This document shows, in pieces, positions 5,219-21,154 of a stretch of 28,686 bases of DNA; within the stretch, counting starts at the first letter, position 1, and each line of letters starts with the position of its first letter. A program made the position numbers and the translations under genes. Source of the DNA: a virus; IMG/VR virus record IMGVR_UViG_3300030109_001874, positions 1-28,686 of that record; one strand, written 5' to 3'. The notes below the pieces were generated by a model. The model had not been told where the DNA came from. It ran no database searches and was given only the letters and a program-made list of their open reading frames with translations.

Positions 5219-7492
5219 TTAAGCTGCATTTTTTATTTTATTAAATTTTCTAACATATTCGTCTTTCATACTTCCTTCGTAGGAATTTGTGTCTCCAGAC
5301 AAATAAGCTTTACCCCATTGTTCTCCTCTTACAGCGCGTCCACGTATTGTTCTCATACCGTCTGCAATGTAAGTGTAGTTGTCTTCAGTTTCAAAGTTGT
5401 AAATAACTTGTTTCTTTAGTCGTCCTTCAGCAGGTTCAACTCGCGTAATTTCTACTAGATTGTTGTTGGGACCAAGAACTATGTCGCCTATATTTAACCA
5501 CTGTACGATAGCTGCTGTCCCATCACCTTTAATCATCCATTCAGTTCCAGATACCATCGAATCATTTAGATGCCAAATTTCAGGGTGTACATCTACAAGA
5601 AGAGATACAATAGGTTTAGCTTCAAGCGGTGTGTTCCAACGGCGTGTCTTTTTAGTTTCAGGATAAGACATAACCATATCGCCTATTTTTAAATCTTCAA
5701 TATTACGGTATGTATTGTTAGCCATAAGTATTTGAGTTCCTGCGACCCAACATGCTGATCCACCACCATCGTCGCCTTCTCCTTCGCCTTCTCCTTCTCC
5801 TTCCCCTCCATAATCTCCAAAATCGTCATCAAAACCGAATATTCCCATTGACGCTTCACTAAAAGCCACGTCTGCTGTAGGACCGCCTATTCCTTCTGAA
5901 GCTGCTTCTGCTGCGGGGTCAACATCAAATATCTCTTTATCTTGATTTCTTTCATCTAAAAATATAGCTTCAGCCTGATCTATCTCCGCTCTAATTTCTT
6001 TCTCAGTTTTAGTGGGCGGTGTTATATTTCTACCTGCTAATTTAGCTAGTTGACCTTCTAATTCTGCTTCTGTTCCGGGCATAGAGAATATACCCTCTAT
6101 AGCAAGATCATCTTGTTCTTGTTGATTTTCCATATCCTCAGGGCTTGTTCCAATACCGAAAAAGTCTGCAAATGGAACAATGTTGTTTATAAGTGCAGAT
6201 AAAAAGTCTTTTGTTGTAAAACCACTATACGTGGAAGAAGCTATCTGTGCGGCTGTAAGACCTACTCCAAATGCAGCGGTTCCAAGACCTGTTGCTACGA
6301 ACGGATTAATACCCGGTACAGCGCCTAATACAAAACCTTCAACAGTATCTTTACCGACTTGTGATAAAACTTGTCCTCCAATAGTTTTTGCAGTAGTCTC
6401 GTCTATCGCAAGATCAAGTTTTTCTGAAAATAAATCTATTGAACGAGATAGTTCCATACCTAAAGTATTTTTGCCTTCTGCTTCTGCTCTTGCAATGTCA
6501 GCAGGAGTTGTTATAGGTCCACCAAACAAAGACGCTGTAGGAGCATCTTGTGTGGCAAAAGCTGAACTTTGTGTAGCAGCAATTGCCTCTTCTTCTTCTG
6601 ATGCTTTAAAAAATCCTTCAAAATCATCCGAAATATTTACAAGTGGATCATCTACTTCTTCACCAAAAATAGGATCAATAACGTCTACAAAATCGGTTGA
6701 CTTAACTGCTTCTGTTAACTCATCTAAAACATCTCGTTCTCTTGTAACATCTGCAACTTGATCAAACACTTGTTTAACAGATTCCGGTTCCGTAACAGCT
6801 TTCGGTGCTTCTACTGGTTCAGCAAGAAAACCCGGATTTATTTGCTTTATTGTTTCTATAGCTAGATTTTGAATACTTTCTTGATCTTGTTTTTTTTGTG
6901 CCGCTCGTCTAGCCTTGAGTATAAAAGATTCAAGAGCTTGTGCTTCTGGATCGGTTCCTAAATCTTCTCGTAATTGTGTTACAAAAGATTGAATTGGTTC
7001 CGGTTTAGGAGCAGAAGGATCAGAAGGATCAGGAGTAGCAGTAGGTACAAAACCACTTTGTTGACTTAGTGCAGTTACTGCTGGAGTGCTTGATGAAAAA
7101 CCTGCTTGAGAAGAAGAAAACACGGGGTCAGGTTCTGGTGCTGGGGCTGGGTCTGAGGCTGTAGGTTTTGCAGCGGTAGTTTTAGTTTCAGGTTGTTCTT
7201 TACGATCTACAATCCCGTCTAAATTTCCTTCCCACCACTTTCTAAAATCTGGGTGTTCAGGGTAAGCATAGGGATGGTTGTCATAATCTGGCCCCTCATC
7301 ATCATAAAGACCTCCTGCAAAAGCATCTCCACTAACGTTTGGATTATGATAATGTGTAGGACCAACTTCTCCTCCCTCATTAATAACTCCTAAGACGCCC
7401 TGCTTTAAATACTCAGGATCACCAAACCCACCTATGTCTTGTAGATATTGTTTTAAATGTTGAAACCCGCTGTCAGTTTGATCTACTGGCAT
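5219..7492 (-). CDS. Large virion-associated protein with a C-terminal degenerate Hint (intein-like) domain
   Basis: This 757-aa protein has an acidic, Pro/Ala-rich N-terminal half, a hydrophobic Gly/Ala segment at about 383-418, an acidic linker with repeated Glu-Gly pairs at 563-573, and then a Hint-type module from Cys581. The module shows CWVAGTQILMANNTYRNIED and LKIGDMVMSY (block A-like) and VIYNFETEDNYTYIADG near 696-712 (block F-like). The nucleophile position Cys581 is kept. The block B His is not visible (SGTEWMI where T-x-x-H is expected), and the final HN is replaced by MRTIRG plus about 40 more residues. It lies between the portal companion gene and the M15 peptidase, so it is probably structural or ejected. 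Whether it cleaves itself is unknown. Confidence 0.75.
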   Translation of the reverse strand: MPVDQTDSGFQHLKQYLQDIGGFGDPEYLKQGVLGVINEGGEVGPTHYHNPNVSGDAFAGGLYDDEGPDYDNHPYAYPEHPDFRKWWEGNLDGIVDRKEQPETKTTAAKPTASDPAPAPEPDPVFSSSQAGFSSSTPAVTALSQQSGFVPTATPDPSDPSAPKPEPIQSFVTQLREDLGTDPEAQALESFILKARRAAQKKQDQESIQNLAIETIKQINPGFLAEPVEAPKAVTEPESVKQVFDQVADVTRERDVLDELTEAVKSTDFVDVIDPIFGEEVDDPLVNISDDFEGFFKASEEEEAIAATQSSAFATQDAPTASLFGGPITTPADIARAEAEGKNTLGMELSRSIDLFSEKLDLAIDETTAKTIGGQVLSQVGKDTVEGFVLGAVPGINPFVATGLGTAAFGVGLTAAQIASSTYSGFTTKDFLSALINNIVPFADFFGIGTSPEDMENQQEQDDLAIEGIFSMPGTEAELEGQLAKLAGRNITPPTKTEKEIRAEIDQAEAIFLDERNQDKEIFDVDPAAEAASEGIGGPTADVAFSEASMGIFGFDDDFGDYGGEGEGEGEGEGDDGGGSACWVAGTQILMANNTYRNIEDLKIGDMVMSYPETKKTRRWNTPLEAKPIVSLLVDVHPEIWHLNDSMVSGTEWMIKGDGTAAIVQWLNIGDIVLGPNNNLVEITRVEPAEGRLKKQVIYNFETEDNYTYIADGMRTIRGRAVRGEQWGKAYLSGDTNSYEGSMKDEYVRKFNKIKNAA

Positions 7493-7498
7493 ATTTAT

Positions 7499-7723
7499 TT
7501 ACTCTTGTGCTTTTGCATCTGATTTAACCGATATATTCAGGTTCTGAAGTGTTTCCAGTAAAGCCATCTTGCCCTGCAGACGGCGCATCTCCAATTCCGA
7601 TTCCACCACCACCAACTGCCGTTGCGTCATTTGGCCCAACTGTTGTAGGTACTCCTCCAGCGGCTCCCATGTTTCCGGGTTGTTGACCAGCGGGAGCAGC
7701 TTCTTCGCCTGTTGTGCGTTCAT
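7499..7723 (-). CDS. Small portal-companion protein overlapping the portal 3' end in another frame
   Basis: This 74-aa helical protein (MNAQQAKKLLPLVNNPETWE ... YLQQLGQMTQRQLVVVE) has the form of the short conserved protein often found just after the portal gene in podoviruses. ATG 7723 has a good AGAGGAC at 7728-7733, inside the portal coding sequence. It overlaps the last 200 bases of the portal gene and ends seven bases before the Hint-protein start. The stretch it covers encodes only a Gly/Ala/Pro-rich low-complexity portal tail, which suggests this frame carries the constraint. Confidence 0.75.
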   Translation of the reverse strand: MNAQQAKKLLPLVNNPETWEPLEEYLQQLGQMTQRQLVVVESELEMRRLQGKMALLETLQNLNISVKSDAKAQE

Positions 7724-9584
7724 TTAGTCCTCTCAATACCTCTGCAAAAATAGCAGCATCATTTACATCATTTACAAGAAGATCAGGGTCAATGTCTTGA
7801 CTGATTGCAAGTTCTCGTACTAGATTTGGAATCTTAATAAACGGAGCAAGCATCGGGTTTGCTACTGTTTGTAACAGTGCAGTCAAGCGTTGACTTCTTA
7901 CTTCTTTTTGTATGACTGCGCTTGTTCCGCGAGGCTTAATCTCAAGATCACCGTATATTTCGGTCATGTTATCATTAAACTGCATGTTCCACTGAAAAAA
8001 CGCCTCACCCATTGGCTTGAGAAGAAAGTCATCAATATTTTTAATTACTGTTTTAATGCTTAAACCTGCACTAGACATAAGCATACTTAGACCTGCTGCT
8101 GTTCGTCCAGTGCCAGTTACGCCTGTTTGACCGTGCGTAATACTTGGAATACCCGTCTGCTCGTCTGCAAGCTGTCGGGCCTTATCGTACATTTGTATAT
8201 TTTCTCCAGCAGTATTAGGAAACTTAATTCCATTTATTGCTGTTCCCGTTACGCCAGACTGCCTACGAAAGACCTTGCCGGGATATACATCGTACGATTG
8301 GCCGGGAACCAGTTGCGTTTCATCTATGTCAAATACAAGATTACCAGCAAGAGCTAGGTTATCAATAGCCATACGAACATGTCCGTTCATTAGAAGCTGG
8401 CTATCTTCCATATTTTCAGCTACACCTACACCAAAGATTTGATATGGGTTAAGTTCAAAAGGAAATGAATAAAATGGAAGCCGTGTAGGCAAGAATGGAT
8501 TAGATACAATACGAAGAATATGGTTGCCACAAATCCAAGCGTTTACCTGAATAGACGGTCCCGCATCTGCTGGTATTTCAAGACCAGCGTCTTCAGCACT
8601 GTTCGTATCCATGATACCCCAGTACTCCAACACTTCATAACGATACTTTTCATTTTGAGTATCTTTTTCGTTATTATAGAGAGTGCTTTCAAAATAACGT
8701 TCTTCATAGTTTGGTCCTTCTTCCAAAACTGCTTCAATAGCATCTTTGTCAAACAAAGGTCGGTTTAATAAATCAAACAGTTGCTCACGATTAAATCTGT
8801 GACGCTGAATAGCGTATTCGCAATCGTGTGTAGATGTAGCAGAAGGATCAGGATAAAAATCCCAACAACTTACAGACTCAATACGAGGCACAGACTTTTC
8901 GTACGGTGCGTAAATCTTTTCTTCTGTTTCTTCATTTATAGACCAGTTATGTACAGTCTTGTTGTAGTTAAATGGTCCTTTAATAATTCCTGTGCCTAAC
9001 AAAGCACATTCAAACAAAGCGTGACGCATAACAGTTACAGCGTTTGTATCTAAAAGCTGATCTTGCATACACTTTTCAAGAAAACGTGCAGCTTCTCTAG
9101 TTGGAGAAACTTGCGGCTCTCCTGCTCTTGATGGACCTTCTTCTAAATTTGCACCTTCATAACGATCAGCCATTCCACCCAAAGGTAGTGTAGCTTCTGT
9201 AGCACCGGGAGGAAGTTCTCTACCGTCACCCGGAAAACCTAGCGGGTCCGGTTCTTCTTCCGGTTGTTGAGGATTTTTAGACAGGTGTGCAAATTCTACA
9301 ATACCTTCTGGTACTGGAGTAGACTCAACTGAAATGGGAAACTTATTTTGCGAAAAAAGAATGTCTACGATCTGACCGTAAGCGGCAAGAACTTTTGTTT
9401 TTGTAATCTTAATAAAAACTTGACTTCGCTCATTTTCACGATACTGTGTTGAAGAATCGTAGATACCACGATAATTCTTATAAGCTTGTAGCCATCTCTC
9501 TTCGTCAGGAAGCCTTCCAGTTTCAGCATCTTCAAAACGAGACTGAATGGTTCCAACAAGTTCATACTTGTCTTCTTGCTTCAT
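7524..9584 (-). CDS. Portal protein
   Basis: This 686-aa protein lies in the packaging/head cluster and is of usual podovirus portal length. It opens with a helical region (LQAYKNYRGIYDSSTQYREN near 48-67, TKTKVLAAYGQIVDILFSQN near 80-99). Later portal-type segments include SFPFELNPYQIFGVGVAENM, EDSQLLMNGHVRMAIDNLAL and a stem/crown-like GRTAAGLSMLMSSAGLSIKT. The last 70 residues are low-complexity Gly/Ala/Pro and overlap the small gene at 7499-7723. The protein would form the dodecameric DNA channel at the capsid vertex and dock the terminase. Confidence 0.85.
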   Translation of the reverse strand: MKQEDKYELVGTIQSRFEDAETGRLPDEERWLQAYKNYRGIYDSSTQYRENERSQVFIKITKTKVLAAYGQIVDILFSQNKFPISVESTPVPEGIVEFAHLSKNPQQPEEEPDPLGFPGDGRELPPGATEATLPLGGMADRYEGANLEEGPSRAGEPQVSPTREAARFLEKCMQDQLLDTNAVTVMRHALFECALLGTGIIKGPFNYNKTVHNWSINEETEEKIYAPYEKSVPRIESVSCWDFYPDPSATSTHDCEYAIQRHRFNREQLFDLLNRPLFDKDAIEAVLEEGPNYEERYFESTLYNNEKDTQNEKYRYEVLEYWGIMDTNSAEDAGLEIPADAGPSIQVNAWICGNHILRIVSNPFLPTRLPFYSFPFELNPYQIFGVGVAENMEDSQLLMNGHVRMAIDNLALAGNLVFDIDETQLVPGQSYDVYPGKVFRRQSGVTGTAINGIKFPNTAGENIQMYDKARQLADEQTGIPSITHGQTGVTGTGRTAAGLSMLMSSAGLSIKTVIKNIDDFLLKPMGEAFFQWNMQFNDNMTEIYGDLEIKPRGTSAVIQKEVRSQRLTALLQTVANPMLAPFIKIPNLVRELAISQDIDPDLLVNDVNDAAIFAEVLRGLNERTTGEEAAPAGQQPGNMGAAGGVPTTVGPNDATAVGGGGIGIGDAPSAGQDGFTGNTSEPEYIG

Positions 9585-9615: not shown

Positions 9616-9849
9616 TTAACTGTGTGGCGAACTTGCTGCCATTTTACCAAGAACGTTAGCGTCCATGTGTTTGCTTCCTGCTTCTGAAGGAAAGTCTTCA
9701 GTTAAAGGGTAGTTATTTTTAATTTTAGTATCAAACTCTAGCTTTTCACGGTACAGTGCCGACTCGTTTACATCAGAGGTTTCACCCTGTTTTGCCATTT
9801 GTTTTTCGATGTATCCTGCACCGTACATTTGGGTATTTCCTGTAGGCAT
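9616..9849 (-). CDS. Uncharacterised small phage protein
   Basis: This 77-aa protein (MPTGNTQMYGAGYIEKQMAK ...) is hydrophilic and lies between the recombinase-domain protein (upstream) and the portal (downstream), with a 31-base gap to the portal start. It ends in MAASSPHS. It shows no motif, membrane segment or signal peptide. The position suggests a head or packaging accessory protein. Function unknown. Confidence 0.6.
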   Translation of the reverse strand: MPTGNTQMYGAGYIEKQMAKQGETSDVNESALYREKLEFDTKIKNNYPLTEDFPSEAGSKHMDANVLGKMAASSPHS

Positions 9850-9877: not shown

Positions 9878-11983
9878 TTAACGATTAAATAATTCTGCAG
9901 CTTGTGATTGTAAATCTCTTCGTGCAGCCCTAATCTTATCTAGCTGTTCTTCATTTATAGAGCGTGGATCAAGTTCCGTAATGCCGCTGTCTCTCATAAT
10001 TCCTGTAGATATCGCAGGTTGTTCTGCTTCTACTCGTCTTTGATACGTTTCCTCTAAATTATCAAGATACTGCATTCCACCTTCATCCGTAGCCTGTGCT
10101 ATGAAACGATCTTCATCACCCATAAGTCTTTGGGGTGTATCTGCTTCACTTGTTCTTGGTACAGGCATACTTTCCAAATAGTCTGCTTGTCTAACAGTCG
10201 AAGGAGCGGGTCTTTCTCTAGCTTCTGCAAATGCTGCAGGAGTTGCGGCAAGGGCTTCTTCTGCTACAGTTGCTGCTAAACCTAATCCTGTTGCTGCACC
10301 AGCGACAAGTTTTGGACCTGTTTTCTTTGCTGCTTCTGATAGACCTCTAAGAAAGTCTCCCATTTTATCACGACCTTCTTGACGAGAAAGAGTAGGCTCG
10401 GAAGATGTATCGGTAAGACCTTCTTTTAACGATGTTAAATCTCGTTCTGGTTCTACAGGTGCTTCTATTTTTGGTTGTGCAGCTACTTGCGAAGCTTGTA
10501 CTCTTTGTGCTTCTTGTGCAGATAAAGCTTCTTTAACATCATCTGCGTCAAACTCTCCATCAGGGCTGTATCCCTGCATAAACATATCGAATGATTGTTG
10601 AGTAGGAAATGAGGATTGTACTTTTGCTTTTGTTTCCGCATCCATTTCTAACTCATCTAAACGAACTTGGTACGCTGCGCGTTCTGCTACAGTTAACTTT
10701 GCCTTTTCTCCCAAAGCTTTCATGTCTGCTTCATTTGTTACGTCATACAATTCTGAAACAAAGTTTGCAGTGTTAAAACCTTGCTGAGTTAAAAACTCGA
10801 CGGGCGTAATATCCGATAAAAATTTTCGTAAAAAAACAGACTGTCCGGTTGTTGCTTGTGTTGTTTGAAACTCTCCTAAAGTACCTGCCAGATATGTCGT
10901 TTCTCCTATAGTCCTGCCTTTTTCTAGGTGTTGAATAAGGGCATTAGCGTTAGCAACTCCACCACCCTCTGCTTCAGGAGTGCGTGATACAAGAGAATAA
11001 GCAAATTTTCTTAAAACATTATGTGTTAGCGAAATATTTTTTAAAACACCAGTTTTGGTTACTTGTTTAATATTAGGATATCTAGTTTGCTTTAGTTTAT
11101 CTTGAATAATACTTAAATACGTTTCTTCTATTTTTTTTGGACTTGGAAAAACTTTCTCACCACTTGAAGATTTAACCGCATCAAAAAGAATACTATATAA
11201 AGTAGGAGTTAAAGCGTACTCTGTAAGTTTTCCTTTATTATTAATAACCATACTATAATCATCAGAACGAAGAAATGTCTTTACAGAGTCTGTAGCTTCA
11301 AGTTGTTCTTGTGTGGGGTTTATTTGAGATACAAGAGCGTTTACGTCTGATAATCGCATACCTGTAATTACAGACAAAAGCATGTGAGCTTTTACAATTT
11401 TCGCAGGTATGATTTTTTTCTTTTGTCCTACTTCTATATCCTGAATATCGTTTAGGGTATCTCGAAACGTTTTAAGCATAACTGCATCTGGTGCAGTTTT
11501 AATTTGACCGGGTATGTCACGCTCTGTTAAGTCAAAACCTAAAGTTTTAAATGGTTTTTTATCTGTTCCGTCATCAAAAGGATTAATTCTTCCTTTATTT
11601 CTTGTATTCCAAGTAGTTAAAGAATTTGATTCTCCTTTTCCTATTAAATTATTAATTACTGTTTGAATATGGTTTCCTAAATTTCTGACGTTTCCTGTTC
11701 CAAATTTTCTGTCTCCCTTTAAAGTGTTTTCTCCTTTAAGAAGACGCTCGTTTGTCATTACCTTTTCAATATTTTCTTCACTATTAAATTCTTTAAGAGT
11801 TGTAGTGTCAACATTAATACCCGCATCTTCAATTAATTCTAAACTGATACGGTATTCTTTCTCTGCTCCCCATTGTTGACCTTTAGCATCTTTTTGCATT
11901 TTTCGAGATTTAATATAATCTTCAAAAGACTGTCGAACAGATGGGCCTGTTTGTGGGGATTCTATAAAGGGTTTTTGTGCCAT
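9878..11983 (-). CDS. Tyrosine recombinase domain fused to a virion-like C-terminal region
   Basis: This 701-aa protein combines two parts. Residues about 1-375 read as a full tyrosine recombinase: a helical core-binding-like region (about 14-120) and then the catalytic set Arg210 (SVITGMRLSDVNAL), Lys250 or Lys252 (NNKGKLTEYALTP), His321 and Arg325 (LTHNVLRKF), His352 (LIQHLEKG) and Tyr364 (GETTYLAG), in the right order and spacing. Residues about 376-701 are helical, charged and Ala/Glu-rich, with a hydrophobic Gly/Ala segment at 557-583, a style shared with the 757-aa virion-like neighbour. The gene lies between TerL and the portal. Possible roles are resolution or circularisation of genomes, integration, or an ejected recombinase. 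The catalytic reading is strong; the role is inference. Confidence 0.8.
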   Translation of the reverse strand: MAQKPFIESPQTGPSVRQSFEDYIKSRKMQKDAKGQQWGAEKEYRISLELIEDAGINVDTTTLKEFNSEENIEKVMTNERLLKGENTLKGDRKFGTGNVRNLGNHIQTVINNLIGKGESNSLTTWNTRNKGRINPFDDGTDKKPFKTLGFDLTERDIPGQIKTAPDAVMLKTFRDTLNDIQDIEVGQKKKIIPAKIVKAHMLLSVITGMRLSDVNALVSQINPTQEQLEATDSVKTFLRSDDYSMVINNKGKLTEYALTPTLYSILFDAVKSSSGEKVFPSPKKIEETYLSIIQDKLKQTRYPNIKQVTKTGVLKNISLTHNVLRKFAYSLVSRTPEAEGGGVANANALIQHLEKGRTIGETTYLAGTLGEFQTTQATTGQSVFLRKFLSDITPVEFLTQQGFNTANFVSELYDVTNEADMKALGEKAKLTVAERAAYQVRLDELEMDAETKAKVQSSFPTQQSFDMFMQGYSPDGEFDADDVKEALSAQEAQRVQASQVAAQPKIEAPVEPERDLTSLKEGLTDTSSEPTLSRQEGRDKMGDFLRGLSEAAKKTGPKLVAGAATGLGLAATVAEEALAATPAAFAEARERPAPSTVRQADYLESMPVPRTSEADTPQRLMGDEDRFIAQATDEGGMQYLDNLEETYQRRVEAEQPAISTGIMRDSGITELDPRSINEEQLDKIRAARRDLQSQAAELFNR

Positions 11984-11997
11984 GTGTAGAGGTTTTT

Positions 11998-13662
11998 TTA
12001 ATATCCAAATGTTGAGTTAACTGGTTGATAGCTTTCTTGCTGTTTAATCGAATGAAACATAGAACTGGTAGCATAGCCAGTCTGACGAGTCATGCACATG
12101 TACCGTAACGCATCGTACGCATGATCCTCTGCCTTTGTATCCACATCTTCCGATTGTGTTTTGGAAAGTGGAAGTGTAGGCAGTGTACGTACAAGATTAG
12201 TACAAGTACCAAAGATTCGTAAACCGGGTTCTTCTCCATTTTTTAACGCAAGTCTACGGTGGAGTTCGATTTTCCCAGCTATGCGATTTCTATCCGCTGG
12301 CACAAAACGTGTACCTCTACGGATCATTGACTCTGCTATGCTTGGTCCCGTGCCATGTCTTGACCAACAAGAACCATCTAAAACTGATTGTGTCATTTGA
12401 GGATCGTCATATTCTAAAGACATAATAAGGTCTGCAATACTTTCTCCGGTGTGACCCTTTTCGTAAAGCTCTCGATATATCCAGATGTTGTTGTCCCAAT
12501 CTACAGCGCCCCAAAGAACACAAGAAGGACTGCTATATCCATAATCCATTGCGCGTATACGGGGCCAATTGTATGGAATCTCAAAAGGTTCAACAACATG
12601 TACAGACCTATCAAATTCACTAAATGCCGCTCCCTCTGCTACGTCCCAATCGCCCTCTAGAAGCCGTCTACGTTCTACTTCTGGTAGACTAAGAAGCATT
12701 GCCTCATATTCACCAGACTCCGCTAAGTAGGGATTGTCCGTAAGTCTTGCTGGTATAAATCTGCGCTGAAAGAGTGGTTGTTGTGTCTTTGGATTTTTTA
12801 ATGTTCGTCCCGTGTCTGGATCGACTGCCCAAAACGGCGTATTTGGTGGACACGGATCAATAAACATTTTTTTAATCCACCAACCACCTGAACCACCCGG
12901 ATTCGCAGAAGCTCGCATATACGTTTCCAACGAGGGGTCGGTGGTTCTGAGTCGGCTACGAAGGTAAGTCCAAACATAGGGGGTGGGATAATGTCCCAAT
13001 TCATCGACGCCAATCCATGTAAATGCTTGTCCTTGATACCTTGTAACATCGTGGTCTTTATCTACGTAGCTAAAAAGTGCTGTAGCTCCGCTTGGAAATA
13101 TCCACGTTGATTTTGATTCTCGAAATACTGCGCCGTTAAAAGCGCGAGGATAAAGTTTGCGTGACTGTTCGATAAGTTCAGTCAATTCTGCAAGTGTTCG
13201 TCTTAAAAGAAGCGCCTTATGGTTTGGATTATCCGCATATCGCAACAGATCAACCAACATCGCGTAAGATTTTCCACCACCTGCTGCGCCACCATACAAA
13301 ACTTCTTTTTCAGGAGATGCCAAAAAGTCCGTTTGCGGACCTTCGTTGGGTCTGAAGATAAGTTCTGTGTCTTCCTGTAGTTGATTTCTGACTTGGGCAG
13401 GTAGGGAAGCAATAGTCCTATCATCTACGACTCCACCTTTTCCAGCGATCTGATCCGATTTCTTCAACGCTTTCGCTTGATTGTTCAGATTCGCTAATTT
13501 CTTCTCTGATTGCTCTAATATCTTCTTCTGAGAGGCGATCTTTCGCCGCTCGCTTACTTTCTTTTTTTGAACTTTTGAATACTGGTAGCGCCCTTTTTCT
13601 CCGGGTTTTAAAGGTGGTCTGCCCCTTTGTTTCTTTTGTGTGCTTTCTGCTGCTTTCGACAT
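11998..13662 (-). CDS. terL: Terminase large subunit
   Basis: This 554-aa protein is the packaging motor: an ATPase followed by an RNase H-like nuclease. Walker A is GGAAGGGKS at 124-132 and Walker B is FTWIGVDE at 214-221. The nuclease acidic residues are likely Asp373 (AMDYGYSSP), Asp429 (VLDGSCW) and Asp517 (DHAYDALRYM). The first 70 residues are an unusually long Lys/Arg-rich extension containing RGRPP, an AT-hook-like core at 13-17. The gene sits between the small basic-protein cluster and the recombinase-domain gene; TerS is 3 kb upstream. Confidence 0.95.
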   Translation of the reverse strand: MSKAAESTQKKQRGRPPLKPGEKGRYQYSKVQKKKVSERRKIASQKKILEQSEKKLANLNNQAKALKKSDQIAGKGGVVDDRTIASLPAQVRNQLQEDTELIFRPNEGPQTDFLASPEKEVLYGGAAGGGKSYAMLVDLLRYADNPNHKALLLRRTLAELTELIEQSRKLYPRAFNGAVFRESKSTWIFPSGATALFSYVDKDHDVTRYQGQAFTWIGVDELGHYPTPYVWTYLRSRLRTTDPSLETYMRASANPGGSGGWWIKKMFIDPCPPNTPFWAVDPDTGRTLKNPKTQQPLFQRRFIPARLTDNPYLAESGEYEAMLLSLPEVERRRLLEGDWDVAEGAAFSEFDRSVHVVEPFEIPYNWPRIRAMDYGYSSPSCVLWGAVDWDNNIWIYRELYEKGHTGESIADLIMSLEYDDPQMTQSVLDGSCWSRHGTGPSIAESMIRRGTRFVPADRNRIAGKIELHRRLALKNGEEPGLRIFGTCTNLVRTLPTLPLSKTQSEDVDTKAEDHAYDALRYMCMTRQTGYATSSMFHSIKQQESYQPVNSTFGY

Positions 13663-14254: not shown

Positions 14255-14911
14255 TTATTCCTTATATAAATTATTAAAGGTTATATCAGGGTCTGTGTAG
14301 CTATCATGTATTTCTGATGAGTGTATGTACTGGCTAGGAACGAAATCAGGTGCGCCCTCTCCAGTAACCCACAAAGCTGGGTTTGTAACTCGTACTCTGT
14401 TGTTTGGCAGTGCAACGATATTACCTGTCCATTTGTCAGCGTCGATAAGCTGTAGTACGTGGCTTTGTTTGTGTTGTGCAGGGTCGTCACTTATGTAGCT
14501 GTCCGTATAGTCTACAGTAAACATATAGCGTCCTTTGTAGAAATCTCCACCTATTTTACAAATCCACGGACTAGAACTTACTCTATCCATAACTATTATA
14601 CTGTGATTGCGTGAAGAACAGTCCCACGGTTGGGCTAGGTGTGTATCCATTCGCTCTGGTACTTCTTCTAAACCCTCATCTGCAATTAAAGCTGTAATGG
14701 GCATTCTTGCCCACATTGCTCCACCATGTACGTTTTCTTCTTCATCTATGCCAGTAAACACAACTTGAAAACTTAGGCAACGGTCTGGAATTGTATTTAC
14801 TGCGATAACAAGAGCGTGTAAAAGCTCTCCATGATATTCTTGATGATTATGAGTAAACTCTTTTCGTATCCAACATTTGAAATGAGGAATATTGCTCATT
14901 AAGTACGACAT
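14255..14911 (-). CDS. Conserved phage protein of unknown function
   Basis: This 218-aa protein starts MSYLMSNIPHFKCWIRKEFT and has a mixed alpha/beta look with many aromatic residues (ARMPITALIADEG, MDTHLAQPWDCSSRNHSIIV, GGDFYKGRYMFTVDYTDSYI). I recall similar proteins in T4-like cyanophages, without a known role. It is the only normally charged protein among its very basic neighbours. No catalytic motif is evident. Confidence 0.7.
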   Translation of the reverse strand: MSYLMSNIPHFKCWIRKEFTHNHQEYHGELLHALVIAVNTIPDRCLSFQVVFTGIDEEENVHGGAMWARMPITALIADEGLEEVPERMDTHLAQPWDCSSRNHSIIVMDRVSSSPWICKIGGDFYKGRYMFTVDYTDSYISDDPAQHKQSHVLQLIDADKWTGNIVALPNNRVRVTNPALWVTGEGAPDFVPSQYIHSSEIHDSYTDPDITFNNLYKE

Positions 14912-14926
14912 GGCACTTCTCCTTTA

Positions 14927-15202
14927 TTAGCATTTCCAGCGCCTTCTAGCTTGGCGTATTCTCGAATTAGGATTCTTTGCAGCTTTTGGAAACTTTTTCA
15001 TCTGTCCTGCGCTTCTAGCACAGTAAGATTTACGTCTTTTTGCTGCTTTGCTTCCCGGCTTGACCTTGCCAGTCACTGCCGTTTTGAGTTTACTCCCCGG
15101 ATTTGCTTTACGGTGCGCTGCTACGCCAGCGCGAGTCATTCCTGCACCCTTTTTGGTAGGACGATAGTTCTTTTTAGTGCGAGGAATTGGTTTTTGTGCC
15201 AT
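14927..15202 (-). CDS. DUF6321-like small basic protein
   Basis: This 91-aa protein contains GAGMTRAGVAAHRKANPGSK, LKTAVTGKVKPGSKAAKRRK, SYCARSAGQMKKFPKAAKNP and ends in RRRWKC. These are the hallmarks of a small viral family I know as DUF6321, common in marine phages. Two Cys residues and a very high Lys/Arg content suggest nucleic-acid binding, which is not proven. Confidence 0.8.
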   Translation of the reverse strand: MAQKPIPRTKKNYRPTKKGAGMTRAGVAAHRKANPGSKLKTAVTGKVKPGSKAAKRRKSYCARSAGQMKKFPKAAKNPNSRIRQARRRWKC

Positions 15203-15334: not shown

Positions 15335-15490
15335 TTATTTACGCCTTTTACGCGCAGTTTGCGCGGCTCTTTTAAATTGACCAGTAGTTGGAGCGCCTTT
15401 TGCTCCCGGTTTTCTCATTTTTTCACCAGAACCTGCCTTTATTCTACGTTTTTTAGCAGCAATATTAGCATACAAACCACGCCTAGCCAT
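15335..15490 (-). CDS. 51-aa basic phage peptide
   Basis: I choose the ATG at 15490, giving MARRGLYANIAAKKRRIKAG followed by SGEKMRKPGAKGAPTTGQFK. The RRGLYANI and GSGEKMRKPGAKGAPT segments are a recurring marine-phage pattern. A longer frame upstream is the shadow of the preceding gene. The start lies eight bases inside that gene, and AAGAAAGG there serves as its ribosome binding site. Function unknown. Confidence 0.75.
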   Translation of the reverse strand: MARRGLYANIAAKKRRIKAGSGEKMRKPGAKGAPTTGQFKRAAQTARKRRK

Positions 15491-15872
15491 TATACTTTGC
15501 CTTTCTTGAGCCACGCGAGTAGACCTTGCCACCGCTTTTCTTATTTTGAGGTAGTTTTCTTTTAGCTGTATCAATTCTACCTCTTGAAACTGTAACGCCT
15601 GTTAGTTTTGGTGGTTCTGGTTTCTTATTGTTAGCAATTAGTTTCCTTGCTCGGTCTCTTATTGCGTTGTTCTCCTCATCGGTTTTAAAAAGAGAAAACA
15701 TAAGGCTTGAGCGAAGGTCAGATATCTCATCTTCAAGACGACTTACTGGAATACCAAGATTAGCGGATACATTAGCTGTATTAAGTCTTCCTAACGTTGC
15801 TCTAAGACCAAAGTTAGCCCTGTTAGGGTTGGCTTGTATAGCACTTCCTCTATAGTTATTATCGTCAGGCAT
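15483..15872 (-). CDS. Uncharacterised protein carrying the shared GGKVYSRGSRKA C-terminal tag
   Basis: With the start at ATG 15872 the protein is 129 aa (MPDDNNYRGSAIQANPNRAN ...), with a helical middle (PVSRLEDEISDLRSSLMFSL) and a basic C-terminus. It ends GGKVYSRGSRKAKYNG, almost identical to the ends of the two upstream proteins although the rest is unrelated. GAAAGG inside the upstream gene lies nine bases before this ATG. The start overlaps the upstream stop by eight bases. Function unknown. Confidence 0.7.
   Translation of the reverse strand: MPDDNNYRGSAIQANPNRANFGLRATLGRLNTANVSANLGIPVSRLEDEISDLRSSLMFSLFKTDEENNAIRDRARKLIANNKKPEPPKLTGVTVSRGRIDTAKRKLPQNKKSGGKVYSRGSRKAKYNG
15488..15535 (-). 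repeat. Third, diverged copy of the gene-junction cassette
   Basis: This stretch encodes GGKVYSRGSRKAKYNG and the ATG of the next gene, as in the copies at 15870 and 16165, but with several silent and replacement changes. AAGAAAGG and the eight-base stop/start overlap are kept. It marks the end of the homology, because the Lys-rich KKAQKKMG part is not repeated here. Confidence 0.75.
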
Positions 15873-16167
15873 TGTAACTAGCCTTTCGAGAGCCACGCGA
15901 ATAGACCTTACCGCCGCCCATTTTCTTTTGAGCTTTTTTCTTAGGTTTAGACATTCCTCCTACATCTCCAGTTTCTTTACCTCGTTTAAAAACTCCCGAC
16001 ATTTCTCTAATTTCTGCATCAGTAAATTTCTTAGGGCTTAACATTTGAACATAAGCATTATGCTTTATTCGCTCACTGGGTTCATTATGTTTAAAAATTT
16101 TCATAAACCTTTTATACATACTATCTGTTACTTCATCTGAAGTATGTGTTAACATTTTATCAGCCAT
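15865..16167 (-). CDS. Uncharacterised basic protein with the shared C-terminal tag
   Basis: Taking ATG 16167 gives 100 aa (MADKMLTHTSDEVTDSMYKR ...), with helical, charged content (FTDAEIREMSGVFKRGKETG) and a C-terminus KKKAQKKMGGGKVYSRGSRK ending ASYNA. The preceding eight codons belong to the repeat shared with the upstream gene, so the longer start is rejected. It overlaps both neighbours by eight bases. Function unknown. Confidence 0.7.
   Translation of the reverse strand: MADKMLTHTSDEVTDSMYKRFMKIFKHNEPSERIKHNAYVQMLSPKKFTDAEIREMSGVFKRGKETGDVGGMSKPKKKAQKKMGGGKVYSRGSRKASYNA
15870..15946 (-). repeat. 77-bp direct repeat, copy 2 of the gene-junction cassette
   Basis: It matches 16165-16241 at 75 of 77 positions by eye. 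Each copy encodes PKKKAQKKMGGGKVYSRGSR plus KA, then a variable residue, Tyr, Asn, Gly or Ala, stop, with the next gene's ATG eight bases before the end. The codons for Ser-Arg-Lys contain GAAAGG, spaced nine bases from that ATG. Confidence 0.9.
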
Positions 16168-16681
16168 TGTAATTAGCCTTTCGAGAGCCACGCGAATAAA
16201 CCTTACCGCCGCCCATTTTCTTTTGAGCTTTTTTCTTAGGTGCGTATGTCTTCTTTAATTTTTTAATATGGTCTTTGGCCCCTTGACGAGTAAAGCCAGC
16301 ATCTATAAGTTTTTCTATAGCTTCCTTTTCACTATTTCGTTCAAAAATTCGTTTGTTTTGCCGTTGCATTTCTTCATATGACATGGATGGAGCATCGAAA
16401 AAGATTCCGTCATCACTTCCGCTTCTATATTCTAATACTTCGCCACCGTCTTTCATATTTGCCTTTACGTCCAGTTCTAAATCTTTTCTGGCTTTCTTTA
16501 TCTCAGCCCGTCCCGCTTCCGTTTTTTTAAGTTGGTTAAGTCGAGTTCGCGCTGCTTTTTGTTCTTGCGCTCTTTTTTCTGTATCACCTTCATCTGGACG
16601 GTCTTGTAAAATTCCTAATGCTTCAATAGCATTCATAGAACTAATTTGTCGTTTGGTTAACGGTAATAACGGACCTGCCAT
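16160..16681 (-). CDS. Uncharacterised helical protein with the shared C-terminal tag
   Basis: This 173-aa protein is mostly helical and charged (EKRAQEQKAARTRLNQLKKT, IERNSEKEAIEKLIDAGF-like region), with a central GGEVLEYRSGSDDGIFFDAP segment and a late GFTRQGAKDHIKKLKKTY. It ends in the shared KKMGGGKVYSRGSRKANYNG. ATG 16681 follows TerS by two bases, with GGGGAG upstream. Position between TerS and TerL suggests a packaging or virion accessory. Function unknown. Confidence 0.7.
   Translation of the reverse strand: MAGPLLPLTKRQISSMNAIEALGILQDRPDEGDTEKRAQEQKAARTRLNQLKKTEAGRAEIKKARKDLELDVKANMKDGGEVLEYRSGSDDGIFFDAPSMSYEEMQRQNKRIFERNSEKEAIEKLIDAGFTRQGAKDHIKKLKKTYAPKKKAQKKMGGGKVYSRGSRKANYNG
16165..16241 (-). 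repeat. 77-bp direct repeat, copy 1 of the gene-junction cassette
   Basis: This is the upstream copy of the near-perfect repeat at 15870-15946. The two visible differences are one C/T change near the ATG and one G/A change in the Tyr-Ser part. It joins the 173-aa and 100-aa genes and contributes the C-terminus of one plus the ribosome binding site and start of the next. Confidence 0.9.
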
Positions 16682-17721: not shown

Positions 17722-18153
17722 TTAATTAATTGTTAGTTGTTTGGCTTGTTGAGACTCAGGAACAACTTCCTTAATGTGTACAGTCAACAGTCCATTTTTA
17801 AAAATTACATTTTCTACTTCTACGTTTCGTCCTAGCGCAAAGATTTTACGAAAGTTTCTTTTTGCAATACCACGATGCGCGTAGTTGTTGTGTTCTGTTT
17901 TATTTTCAACATTACCAGAAATAGAAAGGGTTTGACCTTTTAACACAACTTCTAGGTCTTCTTTGTCAAAACCAGCAACGGCTAACATGATTGCGTAAAT
18001 GCCATCTCGCTGATTGATTATGTCGTGCGGAGGGTAGTTTGCGTTTGATGAGTTTTCTACAACGGATTCCATACTTTTAAAAAACGGATCGGACCCGATA
18101 AACTGATTAAAGAAACGTGCTCCCAATAGTGTATCTAAATATACATGAGGCAT
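17722..18153 (-). CDS. Small heat shock protein (Hsp20/IbpA-like chaperone)
   Basis: This 143-aa protein is a clear alpha-crystallin-domain chaperone. It shows NYPPHDIINQRDGIYAIMLA, the AVAGFDKEDLEV strand pair, GIAKRNFRKIFALGRNVEVE, and the hallmark FKNGLLTVHI, then a short C-terminal LTI that may be the I-x-I assembly motif. Such proteins hold unfolding proteins in soluble form; phage versions are known in marine cyanophages. It is the first gene of the late block, with GGGAG nine bases before ATG 18153 and a long leader carrying an inverted repeat. Confidence 0.93.
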   Translation of the reverse strand: MPHVYLDTLLGARFFNQFIGSDPFFKSMESVVENSSNANYPPHDIINQRDGIYAIMLAVAGFDKEDLEVVLKGQTLSISGNVENKTEHNNYAHRGIAKRNFRKIFALGRNVEVENVIFKNGLLTVHIKEVVPESQQAKQLTIN

Positions 18154-18205
18154 AATCGTATACTCCCTTGCCCTTTGTTTCTAGGCGCAAATAGAATGAG
18201 TGTGT

Positions 18206-18314
18206 GTACTTAGCTTTGTGTTTTAAGTCCCGTCACATACTTTGTTACAATATAAAAATATTCTACAAGAGGTTGGCAAAGTGTGAACATGTAAAACACA
18301 AATAGCCTAAGTAC
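18206..18314 (-). repeat. Long inverted repeat in the 5' leader of the Hsp20/late transcript
   Basis: Arms at 18206-18224 and 18293-18314 pair over 8 bases (GTACTTAG with CTAAGTAC) and a further 10 (TTTGTGTTTT with AAAACACAAA), split by a small asymmetric internal loop. The apical loop is about 68 bases. The upstream arm begins within a few bases of the predicted transcription start (about 18316), so the stem would close the 5' end of the late mRNA. This may protect it from RNases or control Hsp20 translation. Confidence 0.7.
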
Positions 18315-18322
18315 TATATACT

Positions 18323-18351
18323 ATTATAGCGTGTAGGAGACATGTTGTCAA
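18323..18351 (-). promoter_or_regulatory. Consensus sigma70 promoter for the leftward late block
   Basis: On the minus strand TTGACA (18351-18346) and TATAAT (18328-18323) are separated by exactly 17 bases, a perfect match to the consensus. Predicted start is near 18316, about 160 bases before the Hsp20 ATG. It heads the Hsp20, lipoprotein, TerS, head and tail genes. Confidence 0.85.
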
Positions 18352-18381
18352 CACTTTTTTTACTTTTTGTACATTTTTTTC

Positions 18382-18410
18382 TTGACAGAATAGCTTTCAG
18401 CCTGTATAAT
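18382..18410 (+). promoter_or_regulatory. Consensus sigma70 promoter facing right, without an evident gene
   Basis: TTGACA at 18382-18387, a 17-base spacer and TATAAT at 18405-18410 match the consensus perfectly. Predicted start is near 18417. It is back to back with the leftward promoter (30 bases between the -35 boxes). Downstream + strand sequence has no credible protein, only structured repeats, so the product is probably an RNA. Confidence 0.85.
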
Positions 18411-18416
18411 AGGAGA

Positions 18417-18612
18417 TACTCCGTTGGGCAAAGGGATACTTATAGAGTATCTAATAGATCGTATAGCGAAAAGATTCACGCTCATAGTTTCTTTACGATC
18501 TGAGTAGCGAAAAGATTCACATACTAAAAATAAAATAAAATTCGCCTTTGGGTGTACAGTTATATGGGGGAGGCCACTGGCCCATCCCGCGCCCATTATG
18601 GATTTTTTTTAC
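18417..18612 (+). ncRNA. Candidate structured non-coding RNA
   Basis: The transcript would start just after the perfect promoter. It contains a six-pair hairpin (GATACT/AGTATC, about 18435-18451), an eight-pair stem AGATCGTA (about 18456) with TACGATCT (about 18493) enclosing AGCG/CGCT, two copies of TAGCGAAAAGATTCAC, a GGGA-GGCC hairpin at 18568-18588, and a run of eight T at 18603-18610 that might end it. The hairpin is 14 bases from the T-run, so the 3' end is uncertain. There is no good reading frame. Confidence 0.4.
18464..18520 (+). repeat. Paired 16-bp direct repeats
   Basis: TAGCGAAAAGATTCAC occurs at 18464-18479 and again at 18505-18520, 41 bases apart, close to four helical turns. 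Both copies are preceded by GATC. They lie 54 and 95 bases after the + strand promoter -10 box. They may be protein-binding sites or repeated elements of the RNA. Confidence 0.75.
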
Positions 18613-18861
18613 ATTTTTAGTGATAAAATCTCGGCGAGGTTGCTCGATAGTCTTTTCGGGGGCTTCGCGCTACACAGCCGCAAAGGCTCCAAAGTTTTCG
18701 CGCCAGTGCGGGCGCACATTTCAATGCAATGACAAAAAGTTTCTTTCAAAACTAAGCTGTAGAGGGGGGGTGGGCGCACAAAGCCTAGCAGGTCAAAAAG
18801 TCACAAAAGCCTATCCGATCAAGTCAGTACGGATTAATTAGCCACATTATCCATATCGCAC

Positions 18862-18903
18862 ACAAAAAAGAGCCCCGCAAAGACGTTACATCTGTGCAGG
18901 GCT
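18862..18903 (-). terminator. Intrinsic terminator of the leftward middle block
   Basis: As leftward RNA, AGCCCUGCA and UGCGGGGCU form nine pairs (one G-U) around a 15-base loop, followed at once by CUUUUUUG. It lies 29 bases after the last gene (stop at 18932). It isolates the block to the right from the late promoter. Confidence 0.85.
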
Positions 18904-18931
18904 GAGTTCACTCAGGGGAAAACGGTGGTGG

Positions 18932-21102: not shown

Positions 21103-21154
21103 GCCGAGCCGAGCCGAGCCGAGCCGAGCCGAGCCGAGCCGAGCCGAGCCGAGC
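21103..21154. repeat. GAGCC pentanucleotide tandem repeat
   Basis: Nine perfect GAGCC units run from 21106 to 21150, with partial units on each side. The tract is GC-rich inside AT-rich non-coding DNA (21002-21233). It has no stop codon in any frame and reads Gly-Ser-Ala-Arg-Leu leftward. Unit number could change by strand slippage. It lies in the leader of the DUF932 gene. Confidence 0.95.

What the first reader, a model, noticed from the sequence alone, without database searches (positions are those of the whole stretch)
9878..11983. A complete tyrosine-recombinase domain fused to a virion-like protein inside the packaging/head operon
Residues 1-375 show the full catalytic order R...K...HxxR...H...Y (Arg210, Lys250/252, His321, Arg325, His352, Tyr364). 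Phage integrases are normally short, stand-alone and next to an attachment site. Here the domain lies between TerL and the portal and carries about 325 extra residues with a hydrophobic Gly/Ala segment, similar in style to the neighbouring 757-aa protein. The late position suggests it is made with the virion and perhaps packaged and ejected with the DNA. It could circularise or resolve genomes, or integrate at infection. I know of no described recombinase used this way.
Basis: partly seen in the sequence, partly recalled or inferred. Interest (0 to 1): 0.82.

Follow-up and report, generated by a model that had tools for sequence, protein, structure and literature searches.

The report
Tyrosine recombinase fused to packaging-operon protein
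Many ocean phages of the HMO-2011 type carry, between their DNA-packaging motor gene and their portal gene, an exchangeable gene that fuses a DNA-recombining enzyme to a long tail of unknown function; it may be a recombinase that travels inside the virus particle, which would be new for tailed phages.

Summary
The ORF at 9878-11983 (minus strand, 701 aa) is a divergent tyrosine recombinase (YR) fused to a ~320-aa C-terminal module. No library named it, but a portal-anchored scan showed that the same slot (TerL - X - ~75-aa ORF - portal) holds a YR fusion in 62 of 83 related HMO-2011-type loci, and in 0 of 35 more distant ones. At ~15% identity, R210, R325 and Y364 stay invariant, with K250 and H/R352. 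A profile made only from distant members finds the window protein (E 1.5e-10).

The gene is a translationally coupled cassette: 9 relatives lack it, flanks that are 97-98% identical carry slot proteins only ~25% identical, and the YR and C-terminal modules recombine separately. Three large relative records hold no other YR. Coding position and architecture suggest a recombinase made with the virion, perhaps packaged and ejected, but virion association and activity are unproven. Baculovirus VLF-1 is a structural YR, so the idea is not without precedent; for tailed phages I found none.

The parts
9878..11983 (-). 701-aa slot protein: tyrosine recombinase + C-terminal module (P0001)
   Evidence: homologous slot ORFs
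11444..11941 (-). N-terminal mostly helical region (res. ~15-180), core-binding-like domain
   Evidence: AF2 model of residues 1-405, pLDDT mostly 80-95; assignment as core-binding domain is inference from helical content and position
10859..11404 (-). Catalytic domain (res. ~194-375)
   Evidence: profile hits to XerC-like/XerH/XerD/XerA chains; Foldseek hits XerA, Flp, Cre; distant-member profile E 1.5e-10
11354..11356 (-). Arg-I, R210
   Evidence: R in 37/37 aligned members and 27/28 held-out
11234..11236 (-). beta-hairpin Lys, K250
   Evidence: K in 31/39 and 24/28 held-out
11018..11020 (-). box-II first position, N322 (His in canonical HxxR; variable here)
11009..11011 (-). Arg-II, R325
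   Evidence: R in 37/37 and 28/28 held-out
10928..10930 (-). His-III/Trp-III position, H352 (H or R in the family)
   Evidence: H17/R20 and H12/R15 held-out
10892..10894 (-). nucleophile Tyr, Y364
   Evidence: Y in 37/37 and 25/28 held-out
9881..10843 (-). C-terminal module (res. 381-701): helices plus low-confidence stretches; exchanges independently of the recombinase module near res. ~400
   Evidence: chimera analysis; model
10226..10312 (-). Gly/Ala-rich hydrophobic segment (res. ~558-586)
11998..13662 (-). TerL, upstream flank of the slot; 14 nt before the slot gene
9616..9849 (-). 77-aa ORF, downstream flank of the slot (kept when the slot gene is absent)
7524..9584 (-). portal protein (SU10_portal PF23899)

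Best explanation
The gene is an exchangeable cassette in the packaging/head operon of a large clade of HMO-2011-type marine podoviruses. It encodes a tyrosine recombinase (helical core-binding region plus catalytic domain with R-K-(x)-R-[H/R]-Y) fused to a C-terminal module. SHOWN from sequence: recombinase homology, conserved catalytic residues, fusion, slot position, tight coupling to TerL, clean presence/absence, modular exchange, and purifying selection on the recombinase core. INFERRED: it cleaves DNA through Tyr364; it is made late, because it is co-directional and coupled with TerL and portal; the C-terminal module takes it into the virion or the portal/packaging complex; and its substrate is the phage's own DNA. 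The mechanism I think likeliest is site-specific strand exchange on the entering genome (circularisation at redundant ends, or integration), carried in with the DNA. A packaging-time action on replicated DNA is the nearest alternative.
For: Profile to PDB: XerC-like 4a8e E 4e-11, XerH 3e-7, with the catalytic R, R, [H/R] and Y of the two sides aligned; domain-only profile 4a8e 9e-11, integrase 3nkh 9e-9. 14 of 34 members hit Pfam Phage_integrase singly and 14 hit phrog_1 integrase; slot proteins L038 and L066 hit PF00589 at 3e-19 and 6e-21, above the curated cut-off. AF2 domain model pLDDT 82, pTM 0.77; the top nine Foldseek PDB hits are all recombinases or type IB topoisomerase. 62/83 slots in the clade, 0/35 outside. 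Starts abut or follow the TerL stop within a few nt. Chimeras and empty slots. dN/dS of the recombinase core 0.22-0.34. No second YR in three large relative records, 43.8-53.7 kb. One non-YR slot protein (L033) shares the C-terminal module (15.8 bits, 0 of 200 shuffles), and GG-K/F-V tags recur at C-termini of slot, post-portal and other late proteins; both fit a virion role but do not prove it.
Against: No virion proteomics, no activity data and no identified DNA site. Nine relatives have an empty slot, so the protein is not an essential structural part. Box-II His is missing and His-III is Arg in half of the members; one member (L154) has Arg-I changed to His. Foldseek E-values are weak (best 8e-3, TM at most 0.48) and residues 354-373 around Tyr364 have pLDDT below 50. 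Terminator-like matches on the coding strand occur near the TerL end (12082-12063), though their number in the region is near chance. L033's C-terminal similarity falls to E 0.09 with composition adjustment.
Confidence: 0.45

Rival explanations
1. Acts late in the producing cell and is not injected: a VLF-1-like or Xer-like enzyme that resolves or processes replicated concatemers next to the terminase, or helps packaging, and may be left in the particle or not.
For: Coupled to TerL; baculovirus VLF-1 is needed for capsid formation, and in a bracovirus VLF-1 and INT-1 are needed for excision of DNA to be packaged (PMC3649998; PMC11654684).
Against: Closely related phages do without the gene (empty slots), so it cannot be required for packaging in this group; no shared resolution site was seen at the cassette junctions.
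Confidence: 0.2
2. An ordinary phage integrase for lysogeny that moved into the late operon; the C-terminal extension is incidental.
For: Real recombinase domain; other HMO-2011-type phages have a tyrosine integrase, and CRP-3 integrates into tRNA-Met (PMC6918029); it is the only YR in three large records.
Against: Late position and translational coupling to TerL are unsuited to lysogeny control; no tRNA or attP-like site is seen beside it; the known int is a separate early gene; no prophage with a slot YR turned up among 84,980 species genomes, the single genome hit from this clade being a 4-kb contig with a non-YR slot protein; the extension is kept in all members, 205 aa or more.
Confidence: 0.2
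3. The recombinase fold was taken over as a DNA-binding part of a head/portal/ejection protein; catalysis is no longer needed.
For: Box-II His lost, His-III often Arg, one member with Arg-I to His; slot proteins without any YR exist.
Against: Arg-I, Arg-II and the Tyr nucleophile are invariant or nearly so at ~15% identity in 60+ proteins, which binding alone would not demand.
Confidence: 0.08
4. A cassette of phage-phage or phage-host conflict: a rapidly swapped, virion- or late-made DNA-cutting protein that acts on competitors' or host DNA.
For: Flanks 97-98% identical with slot proteins ~25% identical, precise gain/loss, independent module exchange; unrelated proteins can occupy the slot.
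Against: No immunity partner seen; dN/dS of the core is purifying; nothing ties it to another target.
Confidence: 0.07

Closest known systems
Xer/Cre/Flp/lambda-type tyrosine recombinases (Pfam PF00589)
   Same: Fold, helical N-terminal region, R-K-R-[H/R]-Y order; several slot proteins pass the PF00589 cut-off
   Different: Box-II His replaced; His-III often Arg; long C-terminal fusion; coded between TerL and portal
HMO-2011-type early integrase (HMO-2011 phage1322_09, CRP-3 gp02)
   Same: Tyrosine recombinase in the same phage group; faint similarity to the slot profile
   Different: 292-357 aa, stand-alone, in the early module upstream of replication genes; HMO-2011 itself has no gene in the slot
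Baculovirus/nudivirus/bracovirus VLF-1
   Same: Tyrosine-recombinase-family protein tied to virion assembly; a virion component; mutation of its catalytic Tyr gives non-infectious virus as reported in PMC3649998
   Different: Unrelated virus lineage, no fusion of this kind known to me; [quoted passage not shown]
Poxvirus type IB topoisomerase
   Same: Catalytic set R-K-R-H-Y without the box-II His (own knowledge); variola enzyme is Foldseek hit 9. Packaging of the poxvirus enzyme in virions is from my own knowledge, not checked
   Different: Profile hits are recombinases, not TopIB; N-terminal region here is helical
Telomere resolvases (TelN, ResT)
   Same: Tyrosine recombinase fold with altered box-II residue (own knowledge)
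   Different: No sequence hit; no hairpin-end data; different gene context

Membership tests
Tyrosine recombinase superfamily | Significant profile similarity to known members | tested here: met
   Family profile vs PDB E 4e-11 to XerC-like; 14/34 members hit PF00589. P0001 alone has no hit
Tyrosine recombinase superfamily | Arg-I, Arg-II and Tyr nucleophile | tested here: met
   37/37 each; held-out 27, 28 and 25 of 28
Tyrosine recombinase superfamily | Box-II His (HxxR) | tested here: not met
   N322 here; S/Y/K/T/A elsewhere. Known active families vary at this place (own knowledge), so this lowers 'complete', not superfamily membership
Tyrosine recombinase superfamily | His/Trp-III | tested here: met
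   H352 in the window; family H or R
Tyrosine recombinase superfamily | Fold | tested here: inconclusive
   Top nine PDB hits are YR/TopIB, prob. up to 0.98, but E at best 8e-3 and TM at most 0.48; coordinates could not be inspected
Tyrosine recombinase superfamily | DNA cleavage and strand exchange | not testable with these tools
   needs biochemistry
Phage integrase for lysogeny | Adjacent attP or tRNA-derived site | tested here: not met
   No tRNA in the window; no space or repeat at the cassette junctions; a distant attP is not excluded
Phage integrase for lysogeny | Integrated prophages with attL/attR | tested here: inconclusive
   No slot-YR prophage found by the portal scan of genome contigs; host genomes are poorly sampled
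HMO-2011-type phage group | Shared TerL, portal, capsid, DNA polymerase and gene order | tested here: met
   TerL and portal ~50-55% identical to HTVC033P/103P/115P and HMO-2011; head and polymerase hits
Virion/ejection protein | Presence in purified virions | not testable with these tools
   no proteomic data found

The most novel reading that the evidence does not exclude
A clade of abundant marine tailed phages builds a tyrosine recombinase into the virion and injects it with the genome, so that the incoming DNA is circularised or integrated before any phage gene is expressed; the recombinase and its carrier are swapped between phages as a cassette.
Probability: 0.4. Interest if true: 0.87.

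Novelty: new variant of a known kind. Interest (0 to 1): 0.72.

Why it matters
[quoted passage not shown] A hidden tyrosine recombinase in the packaging operon of most members of one clade changes how their life cycle should be read. If it is in the virion it would be the first tailed-phage counterpart of a structural tyrosine recombinase that I could find, and a delivered, swappable site-specific recombinase would be directly testable.

Tried and rejected
Single-sequence searches of P0001 in Pfam, PHROGs, PDB and annotated phages gave nothing useful. Foldseek with the full-length model gave only weak integrase hits in the viral library and noise in the PDB; the domain-only model worked better. 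Query-based scans found only close kin, so I anchored on the portal. A genome scan with N-terminal patterns found nothing. The 849-aa slot protein of Rhizobium phage N3_19 and the SGNH hydrolase of phiM6 are unrelated to the YR. No dyad or att-like site was seen at the cassette junctions; repeats at 18.4-18.5 kb were not linked to the protein. General homology of the C-terminal module to non-YR slot proteins was rejected except for L033. Literature searches for virion-borne tyrosine recombinases of phages returned none; only the PMC open-licence library was searched.

Full report
WHAT IS THERE. The ORF at 9878-11983 is on the minus strand, 701 aa, ATG start. The window is a 28,686-base virus record whose TerL and portal are about 50-55% identical to Pelagibacter phages HTVC033P/103P/115P and Puniceispirillum phage HMO-2011; it is an HMO-2011-type podovirus fragment. 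The genes from the tail region through TerL to the small late genes are on the minus strand. The slot gene starts 14 nt after the TerL stop, then come a 77-aa ORF and the portal.

IDENTITY OF THE PROTEIN. Alone, P0001 has no useful hit in Pfam, PHROGs, the PDB or annotated phages, and scans with it find only close kin. I therefore fetched loci by the portal and read what lies between TerL and portal. Forty-two large slot ORFs join one BLAST-linked group with P0001. In a MAFFT alignment of 39 of them R210, F279, R325 and Y364 are invariant where present (37/37), K250 is K in 31/39, and position 352 is H (17) or R (20). Two further alignments of 34 members, at 15% mean column identity, give the same invariant columns. 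Proteins found mainly by a second portal scan and not used in the alignment repeat the pattern: 27/28, 28/28 and 25/28 for R, R and Y. A profile of members that excludes the window's close kin detects P0001 with E 1.5e-10, 36.2 bits, against 8.3 bits for the best of 500 shuffles.

The family profile matches solved tyrosine recombinases: XerC-like 4a8e E 4e-11, XerH, XerD, XerA, with the catalytic residues aligned. Fourteen of 34 members hit Pfam Phage_integrase on their own, and two slot proteins pass its curated cut-off, at 3e-19 and 6e-21. An AlphaFold2 model of residues 1-405 (pLDDT 82, pTM 0.77) has as best PDB matches XerA, Flp and Cre, probabilities up to 0.98, but with weak E-values (8e-3 and above) and low TM-scores; variola topoisomerase IB is ninth. 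The region round Tyr364 is modelled poorly, and I could not measure active-site distances.

CORRECTION. The box-II motif is not HxxR. The sequence THNVLR puts H321 one residue too early; N322 is the HxxR position and is variable in the family. The lysine is K250. The catalytic set is thus R-K-(x)-R-[H/R]-Y.

SLOT BIOLOGY. Of 83 non-redundant loci with both flanks and a portal at least 59% identical to the window's, 62 hold a YR fusion (546-1078 aa), 12 another large ORF, and 9 only the small ORF; of 35 more distant loci none has a YR (three of the 62 were called by motif and one by Pfam). In L067 and L119 the cassette is missing while both flanks are 94-97% identical in DNA to L066, which has it. 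L066 and L092 have flanks 97-98% identical but slot proteins only 25% identical over the aligned part. Window, L002 and L005 look like chimeras: window and L002 share the C-terminal module (90%) but differ in the YR module (71%), while L002 and L005 share the YR module (86%) but not the C-terminal one (41%), with the switch near residue 400. Cassette starts overlap or closely follow the TerL stop. dN/dS of the YR core is 0.22-0.34.

C-TERMINAL MODULE. It is 205 aa or longer in all members, with a Gly/Ala-rich, mildly hydrophobic segment usually 150-230 residues after the Tyr. One slot protein without a YR, L033, has weak but shuffle-supported similarity to it; others do not. Many late proteins of these phages, including slot and post-portal proteins, end in GG-[K/F/R]-V-type tags: 35 of 122 motif copies lie in the last 25 residues, against about 8 expected by length (the expectation is my own arithmetic). 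P0001 itself lacks the tag.

OTHER RECOMBINASES. HMO-2011 and CRP-3 carry a stand-alone early integrase; CRP-3 integrates into tRNA-Met (PMC6918029). [quoted passage not shown] Three large relative records (53.7, 52.3 and 43.8 kb) contain one YR each, the slot one. The portal scan of 84,980 species genomes found no prophage with a slot YR.

INTERPRETATION. Recombinase identity, fusion, slot and cassette nature are shown. Catalytic competence is likely but inferred. Virion association is suggested by position, coupling and the C-terminal module only. Empty slots argue against an essential structural or packaging role. Precedent: baculovirus VLF-1, a tyrosine-recombinase-family nucleocapsid component; [quoted passage not shown] I found no phage example in the held library, which lacks most subscription journals.

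Noticed in passing
window 5219-7492 (-), res. ~578-757: The post-portal 757-aa protein carries a C-terminal Hint/intein-like domain (SACWVAGTQI...; PF05203 E 5.7e-5, below the curated cut-off); the homologue in L002 (8979-10769) lacks it.
   Followed up: partly
window 15483-15896, 15865-16191, 16160-16681 (-); also slot or post-portal proteins in L062, L065, L096, L172, L018, L019, L071: A C-terminal tag of the type GG(G)KVYSRGSRKAxYNG or GGFV/GGKV recurs at the ends of unrelated late proteins in these phages; 35 of 122 GG[KRFLM][VI] motifs fall in the last 25 residues of 600 proteins. Could be a virion-targeting or assembly tag.
   Followed up: partly
window 14927-15202 (-): 91-aa very basic protein whose sequence matches the extreme C-termini of several much larger phage protein families (e.g. 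phrog_10346 443-525/525, phrog_3477 859-928/928), as if a stand-alone copy of a C-terminal domain.
   Followed up: no
window 18154-18931: About 780 bases without a convincing ORF, with a perfect 16-nt direct repeat (18464, 18505), an 11-nt dyad and several imperfect repeats; a candidate regulatory or origin region.
   Followed up: partly
window 21103-21154: Perfect array of about 10 copies of the 5-mer GCCGA between two genes.
   Followed up: no
window 14255-14911 and 17722-18153 (-): PHROG hits to a ferredoxin-labelled family (phrog_3704) and to Hsp20 (phrog_432) in the late region.
   Followed up: no
L154:1174-3051: Slot YR with Arg-I changed to His (TGIH) and Trp at the His-III position by eye; possibly an inactive member.
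   Followed up: partly
NZIV01000047.1 and NHFY01000045.1; NZIV01000030.1 and NHFY01000018.1: Phage contigs of identical length (62,825 and 55,371 bases) are binned in both a Neomarinimicrobiota and a Flavobacteriales MAG; probable mis-binning of phage contigs.
   Followed up: no
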